From Shewanella glacialimarina (lineage in GTDB: Bacteria > Pseudomonadota > Gammaproteobacteria > Enterobacterales > Shewanellaceae), in contig NZ_CP041216.1 in the NCBI RefSeq assembly GCF_020511155.1, positions 1,612,001 through 1,676,000 on the forward strand: DNA of 64,000 nucleotides, written 5' to 3'. The notes below the pieces were generated by a model. That model was not told where the DNA came from. It saw only the letters and a list, made by a program, of their open reading frames with translations, and did no database searches. Positions 51,206 to 56,238 of this stretch are shown here, one piece after another (positions within the stretch are counted from its first letter, which is position 1; every line of letters begins with the position of its first letter). The translations under genes and the position numbers were made by a program.

Positions 51206-51333
51206 GGTTAAATTACTTTTAAAGTCATATATGCTTAAAAAGGCACCAAACTAACGCGCGAAAACATACCAATGTGTCAGCTTCCTTGCTAGGATCGATA
51301 TTTTCGATTTCGATGCTAGCTAAGGAAACAAAT

Positions 51334-54300
51334 TTGAACGCGGATCTTAAGCCACTCTCCAAAGCATTTTTACAGCGTTGTGTGCAAACTGACGCGGCCT
51401 ACATTCGTCGTCGTTTGTTTCGGCTCAATAAACAAACATCGTCAGATCCTACAAATGCTGCTGCCAGAGAAAAAGCGATTGCAGAATTAGAAGCTAGAGC
51501 TATTGCATCGGTTGAAAAAGTACAGCTGCGTCTGCAAAATCGGCCTAAAATAAACTATCCTGACGACTTACCCATTTCGCAAAAACGTGACGAAATTGCC
51601 AGTGCAATAGCGACTAATCAAGTGGTGATTGTTGCAGGTGAAACTGGCTCGGGTAAAACCACCCAGTTGCCTAAAATTTGCCTTGATCTTGGTTTAGGTT
51701 GTCGTGGCATTATTGGCCACACCCAACCACGTCGTTTGGCTGCCCGCAGCGTTGCCAGCCGTATAGCGGATGAATTGAATAGTCCACTTGGTGATGTTGT
51801 TGGTTTTAAGGTGCGTTTTGCTGATGCCATCAGCGAGAACAGTTATGTGAAGTTAATGACCGACGGTATTTTATTGGCAGAATTAACCTCAGATAAATAC
51901 CTAAATCAATATGACGCGATTATTATTGATGAAGCGCATGAGCGCAGTTTGAATATCGATTTTATTTTAGGTTACTTGAAGCAAGTCCTTAAAAAACGTC
52001 CTGAACTAAAAGTCATTATTACTTCAGCGACCATTGATGTTGAACGTTTTTCTCAGCATTTTGATAATGCTCCCGTTATCCAAGTATCAGGCCGTACTTA
52101 TCCTGTTGACACCCGTTATCGTCCATTAGTGCAAGACAATGATCCCGATAGGGATGTGACTGATGGCATTTTTGCCGCAGTAGATGAGCTGATTGCTGAA
52201 GGCCCAGGCGATATTCTGATATTTATGAATGGTGAGCGGGAAATTCGCGACACCACAGATATGCTGCGTAAACAAAATTATCGTGATACCGAAATTTTGC
52301 CGTTATACGCGCGTCTTTCTTATGGTGAGCAGTCTAAAATATTTAAAAGCCACATAGGCCGCCGCATTGTATTAGCGACTAACGTGGCAGAAACCTCATT
52401 AACTGTGCCCGGTATTCGTTATGTTATCGACCCCGGTACGGCGCGAATGAGTCGTTATAGTTATCGCACCAAAGTGCAGCGCTTACCGATTGAGCCTATT
52501 TCTCAAGCCAGTGCCAATCAACGTCAAGGACGTTGTGGTCGTGTTGGCCCTGGTATTTGTATTCGTCTGTATGACGAAACTGATTTTATTCAACGTCCTG
52601 AATTTACCGATCCAGAAATTCTGCGCACTAATTTAGCCTCGGTTATTTTACAAATGCTGGCCATAGGTTTAGGTGATATAGCTGGGTTCCCGTTTATTCA
52701 GCCACCAGAGCAAAAGCATATTCGCGATGGTTTTTTATTGCTAGAAGAGCTGCAAGCGGTTAAAAAGCAAAAAGGCGATTTAGTGTTAACCCCGCTTGGG
52801 CGAAACTTAGCTAAAATTCCGCTAGATCCACGATTAGCCCGCATGGTGTTTGAAGCTAATCAACAGGGCTGCTTACATGAGACATTAGTAATAACCGCAG
52901 GATTATCGATTCAAGATCCCCGTGAGCGTCCCATTGATAAAAAACAAGCCGCTAACGAGTACCATAATCGCTTTGCCGATAAAGACTCTGATTTTAGTAG
53001 CTGGATTAAATTATGGGATCACATCAAGGATCAGAAACGCGAACTATCCGCTAGCCAATTTAGAAAACAGTGCCGTGATGAATACTTAGCCTATTTGCGG
53101 GTACGTGAGTGGCAAGACTTATACACTCAACTCAAACAAGCGGTTCATGAATTAAAATGGCGCTTAAATGATACTCCGGCTAGCTATGATAATTTGCATA
53201 AAGCTTTGCTGGCAGGGCTGTTAAGTCATATTGGTTTTAAAGATGTTAATAATGAATATCTAGGTGCCCGCAACCGTAAGTTTTTCGTGTTTCCGGGCTC
53301 TCCTCTGGCTAAAAAAGGTCCTAAGTGGATTATGGCGGCTGAATTAACGGAAACATCACGTTTGTTTGCCCGTTGCTGTGCCAAAATACAACCCGAATGG
53401 TTAGAGCCACTTGCAGGTCATTTGATAAAAATCAACCATGTAGAGCCGCATTTTGAAGCCAAAGCTGGCAGCGTCGTCGCACTAGAGAATCAAGTGCTTT
53501 ATGGCTTAACTATCGTCAATCGACGTCGTGTGCAGTATGGTCCTATCGATGCTATTGAAGCCCGTGAGATATTTATTCGCAGCGCGCTAGCAGAAGGGCA
53601 GTTGCAAACCAAAGAAGCCTTCTTTATCAATAATCAAAAACTGCTAGATGACATCGAAAGCCTGGAACATAAATCTCGGCGCCGGGATATATTAGTGGAT
53701 GAAGATGTGCTGGTGGACTTTTATGAGCCACGAATACCTGAAGGTATTTATAATGCGCCGCTATTTTTCAAGTGGTGGAAGCAAGCACGCATTGCACAGC
53801 CACAATTATTAGACTTTAACGCTGATTTATTAATGCAGCGAAGTGTTGAGCACATTTCAGCGTTAGATTTTCCTGAGGTTTGGCATAAAGGCAATTTAGC
53901 CCTGAAAGTCAGTTATCATTTTGAACCTGCGAATGCCGATGATGGTGTATCAGTTCACATACCTGTGGCGTTATTAAATCAAATAGATGAGCAAGATTTT
54001 GATTGGTTAGTGGCAGGGCTTCGTGAAGAAAAAGTGATTGGCTTAATTAGGTCTTTGCCTAAAACATTACGGCGTAATTTTGTGCCCGCACCTGATTATG
54101 CTAGGGCATGTGTGCAAGCCATGACGCCCTTTGAGCTGCCTTTAATCGACAGCTTATGCAAGCAATTACTGCGCATGAGCGGTACACGCATTACGGTTGA
54201 TGATTTTGATTTTAACCAATTAACAGCCCATTTATTAATTAACTTTAAAATTGAAGATGATAAAGGCGAATTAATTGCTCAAGGCCGGCAAATCGAGCCG

Positions 54301-55224
54301 TTAAAAGAGCAACTACAGGGTGTGGTGTCTAAAGCTATTCGCCAGGTGGCTGATAAAGGCATTGAACAAGACAGTTTAACTAGCTGGTCATTTGGCCATT
54401 TGCCGGAGCAATATCAGCAGCGCAAAGGGAATTATGAGGTTAAAGCATTTCCTGCGTTAATTGATAATAAAACTGACGTGTCGATTAAACTTTTTGATGA
54501 TGAGTTAGAGGCGGCCAAGCAGCATAGATTAGGCATTAGGCGGTTATTGTTGATCAATATTCCTTCACCGGTAAAGCATTTGCAAAAATCGCTGCCTAAT
54601 AAAGCTAAGCTGGCAATGTACTTTAATCCATTTGGCCAGGTACAATTTCTGATAGACGATATTATTCAGGCATCTGTGCAGCAATTACTGGAAGAAAAAA
54701 ATCTAGATGTGCGTAACGAACAACAATTTGAACAGGCTAAAGATTGGGTCAGGCAAGAATTAAACAGCACCGCTGAAAAAATTGCCTTAAAAGTCGAAAA
54801 AGTACTGACAATTTATCAAAAAATTAAGAAACGCCTAAAGGGTAAAATCAGTTTAGATATTGCCTTTGCAATGAGTGATATTCAAACACAGCTTGATAAA
54901 TTGGTATACAGGGGTTTTGTGCAAGAATGTGGTTGGGATAAGTTGACCGATGTAGCACGTTACTTATCCGCTATTGAAACTCGATTAGATAAGTTACCTG
55001 TTGACCCTAGCAGAGACCGAATACACATGCACAGCATCAGTAAGGTAGAAGGGCTGCTGGCAGCGCAATTAGCGAAAGTCCCGCGACTGCAAGCAGTACC
55101 TGAAGCGTTACATGAAGCACGCTGGATGATTGAAGAATACCGGGTGTCGTGTTTTGCTCAAGTACTTGGCACAGCGTATCCAATTTCTGAAAAACGAATT
55201 TTAAATCACATCAGCCAGGTTTAA
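51334..55224 (+). CDS. hrpA: ATP-dependent RNA helicase HrpA
   Basis: 1296 residues from a TTG at 51334, chosen because TAAGGA stands 7 bp before it and the length then matches E. coli HrpA (1300). In-frame alternatives are ATG 51313 and GTG 51274, without a good RBS. DEAH-family core: VAGETGSGKTTQLPK near residue 98, DEAHERSLNID, ITSATID, LATNVAETSLTVPGI, QRQGRCGRVGPG, followed by the winged-helix/ratchet, OB-like and long C-terminal HrpA-specific (DUF3418) regions. HrpA acts on mRNA processing and on ribosome collision rescue in E. coli. Followed by a terminator. Confidence 0.94.
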   Translation: MNADLKPLSKAFLQRCVQTDAAYIRRRLFRLNKQTSSDPTNAAAREKAIAELEARAIASVEKVQLRLQNRPKINYPDDLPISQKRDEIASAIATNQVVIVAGETGSGKTTQLPKICLDLGLGCRGIIGHTQPRRLAARSVASRIADELNSPLGDVVGFKVRFADAISENSYVKLMTDGILLAELTSDKYLNQYDAIIIDEAHERSLNIDFILGYLKQVLKKRPELKVIITSATIDVERFSQHFDNAPVIQVSGRTYPVDTRYRPLVQDNDPDRDVTDGIFAAVDELIAEGPGDILIFMNGEREIRDTTDMLRKQNYRDTEILPLYARLSYGEQSKIFKSHIGRRIVLATNVAETSLTVPGIRYVIDPGTARMSRYSYRTKVQRLPIEPISQASANQRQGRCGRVGPGICIRLYDETDFIQRPEFTDPEILRTNLASVILQMLAIGLGDIAGFPFIQPPEQKHIRDGFLLLEELQAVKKQKGDLVLTPLGRNLAKIPLDPRLARMVFEANQQGCLHETLVITAGLSIQDPRERPIDKKQAANEYHNRFADKDSDFSSWIKLWDHIKDQKRELSASQFRKQCRDEYLAYLRVREWQDLYTQLKQAVHELKWRLNDTPASYDNLHKALLAGLLSHIGFKDVNNEYLGARNRKFFVFPGSPLAKKGPKWIMAAELTETSRLFARCCAKIQPEWLEPLAGHLIKINHVEPHFEAKAGSVVALENQVLYGLTIVNRRRVQYGPIDAIEAREIFIRSALAEGQLQTKEAFFINNQKLLDDIESLEHKSRRRDILVDEDVLVDFYEPRIPEGIYNAPLFFKWWKQARIAQPQLLDFNADLLMQRSVEHISALDFPEVWHKGNLALKVSYHFEPANADDGVSVHIPVALLNQIDEQDFDWLVAGLREEKVIGLIRSLPKTLRRNFVPAPDYARACVQAMTPFELPLIDSLCKQLLRMSGTRITVDDFDFNQLTAHLLINFKIEDDKGELIAQGRQIEPLKEQLQGVVSKAIRQVADKGIEQDSLTSWSFGHLPEQYQQRKGNYEVKAFPALIDNKTDVSIKLFDDELEAAKQHRLGIRRLLLINIPSPVKHLQKSLPNKAKLAMYFNPFGQVQFLIDDIIQASVQQLLEEKNLDVRNEQQFEQAKDWVRQELNSTAEKIALKVEKVLTIYQKIKKRLKGKISLDIAFAMSDIQTQLDKLVYRGFVQECGWDKLTDVARYLSAIETRLDKLPVDPSRDRIHMHSISKVEGLLAAQLAKVPRLQAVPEALHEARWMIEEYRVSCFAQVLGTAYPISEKRILNHISQV

Positions 55225-55327: not shown

Positions 55328-55552
55328 TTACCGTAGTAAACGTTCTGACATCAAGCTTTGACCATAATGTTCAATAACTTCACCAACAGAATGTTGATCG
55401 AGTTGGCGCAAGGTTGAAATTTCATTAATCAGCAGATCTTGGACATCAACAGGAATACTCATATGTTCCATAAACATATGCATACCCAGATTATCACTTT
55501 GTCTAAAGAGAGCCACTAACTGGCTTGCTTCATATTCAACAAGTGCATTCAT
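55328..55552 (-). CDS. Small acidic protein of unknown function
   Basis: 74 residues, not recognised. It is mainly helical, without signal peptide or cysteines, and rich in Met and Leu (GMHMFMEHMSIPVDVQDLL, STLRQLDQHSVGEVIEHYG). AGGGAAT lies 5 bp or so before the ATG on the minus strand. Convergent with hrpA and separated from it by a terminator. Codon use looks normal, so I take it as real; no function is proposed. Confidence 0.6.
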   Translation of the reverse strand: MNALVEYEASQLVALFRQSDNLGMHMFMEHMSIPVDVQDLLINEISTLRQLDQHSVGEVIEHYGQSLMSERLLR

Positions 55553-55920
55553 GTTTATTCCCTACAAACAGGTTGGGGTAATTAAAATATAGTTTAAAAC
55601 AACGCGGTTTGTTATAACCATTAATTGTAACAGTTTCTAAATATCAGGTTTTAGGATATAAAAAGTGATTTTTGAGGTGAAAGTTTTTCATTATTTTGGC
55701 TGTTATATGGATTGTGCCACTATAAAAACATTCTATTCTGAAAGTTTTTGGTAAGTTTGTGGGTGTTAGACTAGTAATCATTAGCCCTAGGTTGATATAC
55801 TCGCCAGCAGAAGAACGTGATTGGTACTCTTCTCTGTTACTAGGTAAATGTTACTGACAAGATAGCCTAAAAATAAACATGCCTAGACCCTAAACGACCT
55901 AAGAAATGATTGGAGTTATT
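55553..55920. other. Leader region of the micro-ORF unit
   Basis: About 370 bp without a clear gene. It holds TTGATATACTC near 55792-55802, a possible promoter part, and an inverted repeat AGAAGA...TCTTCT around 55809-55835 that could fold in the leader of the following micro-ORFs. These are weak signals. Confidence 0.3.
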
Positions 55921-56001
55921 ATGGAAGTTCATGAATACGAAAACGCTTACTATCAAGTAAAAGACGACGTGTTAGAGTCTCTGCCTTCTGATGAAGAGTA
56001 G
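55921..56001 (+). CDS. Candidate 26-residue acidic micro-protein
   Basis: Begins MEVHEYENAYYQVKDD and ends SLPSDEE; nine or more acidic residues. The ATG is preceded by TTGGAG at 7-bp spacing, and the codons are ordinary for this genome. It is followed by another micro-ORF and a strong terminator, so this forms a compact unit. Not recognised; it could be a regulatory small protein or leader peptide, or part of an sRNA. Confidence 0.45.
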   Translation: MEVHEYENAYYQVKDDVLESLPSDEE

Positions 56002-56018
56002 AGTTTGAACGAGGAATA

Positions 56019-56075
56019 ATGGCCTATAGATTTAGGTTTACACTCCAAGCGACAATGCAAAAAACATTAAAATAG
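56019..56075 (+). CDS. Candidate 18-residue basic micro-protein
   Basis: MAYRFRFTLQATMQKTLK, preceded by GAGGA at 4-5 bp. It starts 17 bp after the acidic micro-ORF and its stop lies inside the left arm of the terminator. Strongly basic, in contrast to the ORF before it. Unrecognised; expression must be shown. Confidence 0.38.
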   Translation: MAYRFRFTLQATMQKTLK

Positions 56076-56097
56076 CAGCCTAGGCTGCTATTTTTTT
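56072..56097 (+). terminator. Terminator of the micro-ORF unit
   Basis: ATAGCAGCC and GGCTGCTAT form a perfect palindromic stem with a minimal TA centre, followed by seven T. No larger plus-strand gene precedes it, so it belongs to the micro-ORF transcript. Confidence 0.88.
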
Positions 56098-56238
56098 GTT
56101 GTATTTTTTGGAGAGTAATCTAAAGGTTAACTGACCTTATCTGGCAAGTTTTTTGTAGGTAGTGATTAGTATGTTGTCGTTCATAATGATTGAACACGGA
56201 TTAAGCGTACTTCGAACAACAATAATAAACTCAGGTTA

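What the first reader, a model, noticed from the sequence alone, without database searches (positions are those of the whole stretch)
55921..56097. Unannotated micro-ORF pair (acidic 26 aa, basic 18 aa) with own RBSs and terminator
Two consecutive very short ORFs each have a good Shine-Dalgarno sequence, are 17 bp apart, show opposite charge, and end in a strong terminator not needed by any larger gene. A ~370-bp gene-free leader with a possible hairpin precedes them. This could be an undescribed small-protein pair, a toxin/antidote-like unit, or a dual-function sRNA.
Basis: partly seen in the sequence, partly recalled or inferred. Interest (0 to 1): 0.62.

Follow-up and report, generated by a model that had tools for sequence, protein, structure and literature searches.

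The report
Conserved hidden small-protein gene in Shewanella
The first of the two tiny reading frames is a real gene, found in nearly every Shewanella species looked at, that makes a very small acidic protein and appears to have its own elaborate on/off controls; the second frame is almost certainly a chance reading frame, and what the small protein does is unknown.

Summary
ORF1 (55921-56001, 26 aa) is a real gene. Its family is in 126 of 129 genomes of the genus, in Ferrimonas and Parashewanella by name, in a genus of another family and, more weakly but beside the same neighbour gene, in a third family. dN/dS is 0.066 in frame and above 1 in shifted frames. ORF2 is not conserved: of 13 clade members, only the window's genome and its nearest relative have it. 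So this is not a pair or toxin/antidote unit. It is a monocistronic gene with an extended -10 promoter, two nearly locus-specific upstream sites (TGAAAGNCTTTCA; CTGAAAGTTTTNNGTAA) spaced mostly in helical-turn steps, a leader hairpin supported by covariation, and a terminator that looks bidirectional. No library searched (Pfam, NCBIfam, PHROGs, PADLOC, Rfam, PDB) gave a convincing match. Best mechanism: an acidic helical protein that binds a partner protein, switched by a dedicated regulator and tuned by the leader RNA. The gene is well supported; partner, regulator and signal are unknown. A dual-function RNA is not excluded.

The parts
55678..55690 (.). Site A, palindrome TGAAAGNCTTTCA (window copy TGAAAGTTTTTCA, one change)
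   Evidence: With up to 2 mismatches in 87 of 104 distinct upstream regions. Exact form at the ORF1 locus in 43 of 60 genus genomes; 32 further exact copies elsewhere, 29 of them inside open frames (counted by hand against the ORF1 places).
55738..55754 (+). Site B, CTGAAAGTTTTNNGTAA
   Evidence: Exact pattern in 35 of 60 genus genomes, once each, always at this locus; the reversed control pattern has 2 copies in the 60.
55793..55801 (+). Extended -10 element TG-A-TATACT; start of transcription predicted near 55808 (not measured)
   Evidence: Distance from site A to -10 is 115-119 bp in 59 of 64 promoters with all three elements.
55842..55884 (+). Leader RNA hairpin (AGGU-AA-AUGUU ... AACAU-GCCU)
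   Evidence: 10 pairs over 22 chosen sequences: 88.6% paired, 7 pairs with double changes, 0 of 500 shuffles as high; over 49 distinct model matches 86.4% paired; model R1 hits window 55841-55923, E 1.9e-11.
55887..55892 (+). ACCYTA element between hairpin and ribosome-binding site
   Evidence: Within 75 nt upstream of ATG in 61 of 89 Shewanella-type, 5 of 5 family-f15 and 1 of 10 Ferrimonas-type leaders.
55912..55915 (+). Shine-Dalgarno GGAG of ORF1
   Evidence: Last three letters invariant and the first at least 90% in alignment A3; GGAG invariant in A4.
55921..56001 (+). ORF1, conserved small acidic protein MEVHEYENAYYQVKDDVLESLPSDEE
   Evidence: 126 of 129 genus genomes; dN/dS 0.066; AlphaFold2 on the 32-aa L019 homologue: one helix, residues 3-20, mean pLDDT 73.8, pTM 0.34.
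56019..56075 (+). ORF2, not a conserved gene (3' UTR of ORF1)
   Evidence: Start codon and frame only in the window's own genome and G034 among 13 sequences of the window clade.
56069..56100 (+). Intrinsic terminator, works on paper in both directions
   Evidence: Found on both strands. A terminator-like hairpin was found by script after ORF1 in 32 of 36 printed relatives, and by eye in the other four.

Best explanation
ORF1 is a monocistronic gene for a small, soluble, strongly acidic protein of 26-32 residues (36 in the most distant relative), probably one helix carrying the YYQ motif, followed by a disordered acidic tail. It is transcribed from an extended -10 promoter that is switched by a dedicated DNA-binding protein sitting at site A (about -124) and site B (about -40 to -62) on the same face of the DNA, probably by cooperative binding. 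The mRNA has a structured leader (hairpin plus single-stranded ACCYUA) that tunes translation or stability, and ends at a terminator probably shared with the convergent gene. The protein most likely works by docking its helix on a larger partner protein and changing its activity. Shown: coding constraint, conservation, covarying hairpin, nearly locus-specific sites and their spacing. Inferred: promoter use, cooperative regulator, regulation by the leader, partner binding. Unknown: partner, regulator, signal.
For: Conservation: 126 of 129 genus genomes; Shewanella, Parashewanella and Ferrimonas by name; family f15; a 36-aa relative beside the same methyltransferase gene in family f2. Coding: dN/dS 0.066 against 1.37 and 1.93 in shifted frames. 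Fixed neighbourhood: the lipoprotein gene is found by tblastn in 61 of 68 named loci and pta in 56 of 68, some of which are cut short. Site B only at this locus, site A mostly so among intergenic places. Spacings fall at 60-61, 70-71, 81-83 bp (A to B) and 34-35, 46-48, 57-58 bp (B to -10) in the 64 of 104 upstream regions with all three elements. On a quick tree of 50 Pta rows the A-B class needs at least 8 changes (one odd row included); strongly supported branches force 5 for the commonest class. Leader covariation; model R1 at the ORF1 start in 56 of 59 named Shewanella and Parashewanella loci, E at most 0.01. A terminator close behind ORF1 in Shewanella, Ferrimonas-type and f15 loci. Predicted single helix.
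Against: No expression, start-site or proteomic data were seen for this locus. The partner is a guess: the hydrophobic moment of the helix is only weakly above shuffles (share of shuffles as high 0.08 for the window, 0.04 for L019, 0.61 for the f2 relative), and the AlphaFold model has low pTM. Spacing exceptions among regions with A and B but no -10 found by my pattern: 72 bp in L026, 107 bp in L122 and L123, and L057 and L139 could not be placed. Sites A and B were not found in the Ferrimonas-type and f15 regions, and the hairpin model finds nothing convincing in 18 loci of Ferrimonas, f15 and f2 (best L079, E 0.022), so that regulation looks like a Shewanella and Parashewanella feature. In G034 an insertion splits A and B from the gene while the frame stays intact, so the control can be lost in at least one genome. 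3 of 129 genus genomes lack a match; in one of them, G087, the place is rearranged.
Confidence: 0.72

Rival explanations
1. Dual-function RNA: besides encoding ORF1, the transcript (about 290 nt predicted in the window) base-pairs with other mRNAs, for example through the conserved single-stranded ACCYUA stretch.
For: Short predicted transcript with its own promoter, structured leader and strong terminator; conserved C-rich stretch outside the hairpin, similar in layout to VcdRP (PMC8672173, passages seen).
Against: The 3' UTR before the terminator differs between clades and is as short as 15 nt in a Ferrimonas locus; no Rfam sRNA family reaches its cut-off; the conserved stretch lies just before the ribosome-binding site, so a cis role suffices. 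No target search was done.
Confidence: 0.17
2. The leader is a ligand-sensing riboswitch (or thermometer) and ORF1 is its only regulated gene.
For: Hairpin with nearly invariant central pairs, an unpaired A-rich bulge and covarying pairs around it; at this locus in 54 of 60 genomes, and 8 further listed rows elsewhere are weak (E 0.001 to 0.08, sorted by coordinates).
Against: Loop length varies from 6 to 77 nt in the leaders measured, little room for a binding core; never found before another gene below E 0.001; no Rfam riboswitch match. This could be true together with the best explanation.
Confidence: 0.12
3. Two-gene toxin/antidote or small-protein pair.
For: Two frames with ribosome-binding sites and opposite charge in the window.
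Against: ORF2 exists only in the window genome and its nearest relative among 13 clade members; no PADLOC match to ORF1; ORF1 has no match in the plasmid and phage collections (72,556 and 50,697 records).
Confidence: 0.02
4. ORF1 is a leader peptide (attenuator) for a downstream gene.
For: Short frame followed by a terminator; ggt follows on the same strand in L078, L143, L148 and L081, and a MerR-like gene in L121.
Against: In the window, L084 and L107 the next gene is convergent, yet the peptide is conserved; the conserved residues are mixed, with no run of one amino acid.
Confidence: 0.03

Closest known systems
VcdRP / VcdP of Vibrio cholerae (PMC8672173, passages)
   Same: Small protein of similar size (29 aa) from a short transcript with its own promoter and terminator; promoter controlled by a transcription factor.
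   Different: Different locus (between vc2278 and vc2279, against beside pta here); VcdRP is a 306-nt Hfq-bound RNA whose base-pairing part lies 3' of the frame, where this one shows little conservation.
SgrS/SgrT and SR1/SR1P (named in passages of PMC8672173 and in search listings; details recalled)
   Same: Short frame plus conserved RNA element in one transcript.
   Different: Here the protein is the widest-conserved part and the RNA element is an upstream leader hairpin, not a seed shown to pair.
Glutamine-riboswitch 'downstream-peptide' genes of cyanobacteria (recalled, not searched in print)
   Same: Structured leader upstream of a very small metabolic-regulator gene.
   Different: No Rfam match here; unrelated lineage.
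MetR operators (TGAAN5TTCA; PMC13393422, passages)
   Same: Site A fits this MetR consensus by letters.
   Different: Site A is far stricter (12 fixed positions of 13) and nearly locus-specific; the consensus that paper gives for S. oneidensis is TGAGNNNNNTTCA.

Membership tests
Type II toxin-antitoxin pair | Two adjacent conserved protein genes | tested here: not met
   ORF2 not conserved
Type II toxin-antitoxin pair | Toxicity of one product relieved by the other | not testable with these tools
   Needs the bench
Dual-function RNA | Conserved coding frame | tested here: met
   Purifying selection in frame; translation itself not measured
Dual-function RNA | Conserved base-pairing region acting in trans | tested here: inconclusive
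   ACCYTA element conserved but next to the ribosome-binding site; no target search done
Dual-function RNA | Binding to Hfq or ProQ | not testable with these tools
   No interaction data
Riboswitch | Covarying structured leader | tested here: met
Riboswitch | Match to a known class | tested here: not met
   No match at gathering score in the window; nothing near cut-off at relaxed threshold in the window region or in 6 relatives
Riboswitch | Ligand-dependent change | not testable with these tools
   Needs probing
MetR regulon | Operator TGAAN5TTCA | tested here: inconclusive
   Exact site A fits by letters; the MR-1 consensus differs; other MetR targets were not compared
Any Pfam / NCBIfam / PHROGs / PADLOC protein family | Profile match to ORF1 | tested here: not met
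   no match for the window peptide; best E 0.12 for a 32-aa relative, far below cut-off

The most novel reading that the evidence does not exclude
A genus-wide, previously undescribed peptide switch: a dedicated regulator with essentially one target in the genome reads a signal at two helically phased sites, a new class of leader RNA adds a second input, and the 26-32 residue product docks on and controls a core protein of Shewanella and Ferrimonas, both known for metal respiration (recalled).
Probability: 0.25. Interest if true: 0.78.

Novelty: new member of a known kind. Interest (0 to 1): 0.5.

Why it matters
A gene kept by nearly every species of a model genus for electron transfer, with two layers of apparent control, matches no family in the libraries searched. 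If it is a regulator of a core protein, deleting about 80 bases would expose a control step that has been invisible to annotation by family and probably to transposon screens, because the target is so small (inference). The helically phased, nearly locus-specific sites would also be a clean case of a regulator with one target.

Tried and rejected
ORF2 as a gene: rejected. Mobile-element or phage origin: no match to ORF1 on plasmids or phages. Known RNA family: none in Rfam at gathering score in the window; relaxed matches were far below cut-off. Solved structure relative: one chance hit to a designed helix, E 0.33. VcdP as an orthologue: different locus, no sequence to compare. Synonymous constraint as proof of an RNA function inside the frame: the identical-codon share is 0.62 in ORF1 against 0.42-0.46 in four neighbouring genes, but ORF1 is rich in two-codon amino acids, so I do not count it. 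Finding the regulator by its other sites: the 32 further exact copies of site A in 60 genomes were fetched (31, one as L158); 29 lie in open frames of 80 codons or more, where a few genes recur because their codons do; the 3 intergenic ones share no neighbour. ORF1-like frames after the methyltransferase in 20 regions of other families: none by my filter. A CTCC in the 3' UTR that could pair with the ribosome-binding site is present in all 13 of L001-L009, L062, L064, L084, L094, but in only 2 of the other 23 sequences printed; left open. Print searches for the gene: the peptide string, the site A strings, Shewanella small proteins and small RNAs, ribosome profiling. None of the listings showed this gene; most subscription papers are not held. 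I could not check how RefSeq annotates the frame.

Full report
Observation. The sequence holds what was described: two short frames at 55921-56001 and 56019-56075 with ribosome-binding sites, 17 bp apart, ending in a terminator whose stem is 56069-56094. The charges are as stated (pI 4.05 and 11.1).

ORF1 is a gene. A DNA search in 60 genomes of the genus gave 49 with a match, many centred on the start of ORF1, a few only on the terminator. A profile of 12 peptides found it in 126 of 129 genus genomes and in 26 of 295 order genomes, in three genera. A scan of named genomes gave 68 loci: Shewanella, Parashewanella and Ferrimonas, plus one record labelled Marinobacter. A second order search with alignment A5 (which held one mistyped row) listed 56 of 394 genomes at E up to 0.3. 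Most hits outside the window's own family and f15 are weak, but 10 in genus g3 of family f2 agree with each other, and the three fetched are a 36-aa frame (MDYNENDLSYYQLQDE...) beside the same methyltransferase gene; one of the three stretches also holds pta on the other side. A class-wide search found only the window's own genome among 369. Over 71 distinct sequences, dN/dS is 0.066 in frame and 1.37 and 1.93 in the two shifted frames; entropy by codon position is 0.42, 0.20, 1.12. Y10, Y11 and Q12 are invariant in the widest alignment, 20 rows. Of 68 named loci, tblastn finds the lipoprotein gene in 61, pta in 56, ackA in 48 and the 74-aa p74 on the other side in 34 (some loci are cut short).

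ORF2 is not. Its ATG and frame occur only in the window genome and G034 among the 13 window-clade sequences printed; other members have no such peptide. In three Ferrimonas-type loci the terminator follows the ORF1 stop after 15-17 nt.

Promoter. Aligning upstream regions showed a palindrome, TGAAAGNCTTTCA (site A), a second block, CTGAAAGTTTTNNGTAA (site B), and an extended -10. Of 104 distinct upstream regions, 87 have A (two mismatches allowed), 85 B (three allowed), 64 all three. In those 64, A-B distances are 60-61 (5), 70-71 (24) and 81-83 (35) bp; B to -10 distances 34-35 (39), 46-48 (19) and 57-58 (6); A to -10 distances 115-119 in 59, 106 in 4, 127 in 1. These are steps of about one helical turn with nothing in between. 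The other 40 regions were left out of these counts; among them A-B is 72 in L026 and 107 in L122 and L123, and L057 and L139 could not be placed, which does not fit as neatly. On a quick tree of 50 Pta rows the A-B class needs at least 8 changes, one odd row included, and the B to -10 class 3, so the steps were taken several times. The exact A pattern has 75 copies in 60 genomes, 43 of them at this locus; of the other 32, 29 fall in open frames. The window's own copy has one change. The B pattern has 35 copies in 60 genomes, all here; the reversed control has 2. This is what a dedicated regulator would leave; which protein it is, is not known. MetR sites (TGAAN5TTCA; PMC13393422, passages) fit A by letters, and I do not claim MetR.

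Leader RNA. Between the predicted start and the frame lies a hairpin, GGC-AAA-AUGUC...GACAU-GCC. On 22 chosen sequences, 88.6% of cells pair, 7 of 10 pairs show changes on both sides, and none of 500 shuffles reaches any of the five measures; slid structures fall to 21-52% paired. RNAalifold predicts 9 of the 10 pairs unprompted. A model of it (R1) matches at the ORF1 start in 56 of 59 named Shewanella and Parashewanella loci. On the 49 distinct matches 86.4% of cells pair and the covariation score is 0.301 (shuffled 0.161, 0 of 500 as high); the number of pairs with double changes, 7, is reached by 13 of 500 shuffles, and the innermost pair fails in 33 of 49. Both alignments lean towards the structure by choice or by fitting. 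In 60 whole genomes R1 gives a match in 56; by coordinates 54 are at this locus, three of them weak (E 0.03 to 0.1), and 8 listed rows lie elsewhere, with E of 0.001 to 0.08. In 18 loci of Ferrimonas, f15 and f2 it finds nothing convincing (L079 at the right place, E 0.022; L147 elsewhere, E 0.32). Loop length varies from 6 to 77 nt in the seven leaders measured, which speaks for RNA structure, not a DNA palindrome. A single-stranded ACCYTA follows in 61 of 89 Shewanella-type leaders and is present in 5 of 5 of family f15, where it sits just after a promoter-like TACAAT.

Mechanism. The product is predicted as one helix, residues 3-20, with a loose acidic tail (mean pLDDT 73.8, pTM 0.34, 20 sequences). 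No library searched knows it. A soluble single helix with a fixed YYQ motif and acidic tail most plausibly docks on a partner protein; this is inference. The hydrophobic moment supports it only weakly. Against a trans-acting RNA stands the variable and sometimes very short 3' UTR; for it, the conserved unpaired ACCYTA.

Known systems. VcdRP of V. cholerae (PMC8672173, passages) is the nearest in layout but lies at another locus and carries its pairing region 3' of the frame. Passages of PMC4239095 and PMC3223726 on Shewanella regulons name no such gene or motif in what I saw. Searches of the held papers by peptide string, site strings and topic listed nothing on this gene; one search's one hit was an unrelated human-DNA paper.

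Verdict. New family of a known kind (small regulatory protein, inferred).

Noticed in passing
55328-55552 (-): A 74-aa protein with no family match, divergent from ORF1 and found beside it in 34 of 68 named loci by tblastn, Ferrimonas included. By eye, a similar 65-aa protein lies beside the methyltransferase gene in family f12 (L210), where no ORF1 was seen.
   Followed up: partly
L252 (G034), about positions 380-1570: An insertion of about 1.2 kb, with transposase-like frames on the minus strand (IS3-like by recall, not searched), sits at the -10 region in the window's nearest relative, separating sites A and B from an intact ORF1 that keeps a -10.
   Followed up: partly
L147: A record titled Marinobacter nauticus DP3N21-5 carries the Ferrimonas-type locus, with an ORF1 one residue from L148 (Ferrimonas balearica, similar strain code); probably a mislabelled record.
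   Followed up: no
51274-55224: hrpA lies upstream, within the 5 kb examined, only in L084-L099, L101 and L102 and the window; in loci inspected elsewhere the neighbours are a permease-like and a methyltransferase gene, so the window clade is rearranged on this side.
   Followed up: partly
56042-56047: CTCCAA in the 3' UTR could pair with the ORF1 ribosome-binding site TTGGAG; a CTCC is present in 13 of 13 of L001-L009, L062, L064, L084, L094.
   Followed up: partly
L215, between the methyltransferase gene and ggt: In family f20 the place is taken by an 84-aa protein on the other strand that by eye has a membrane helix and a coiled coil.
   Followed up: no
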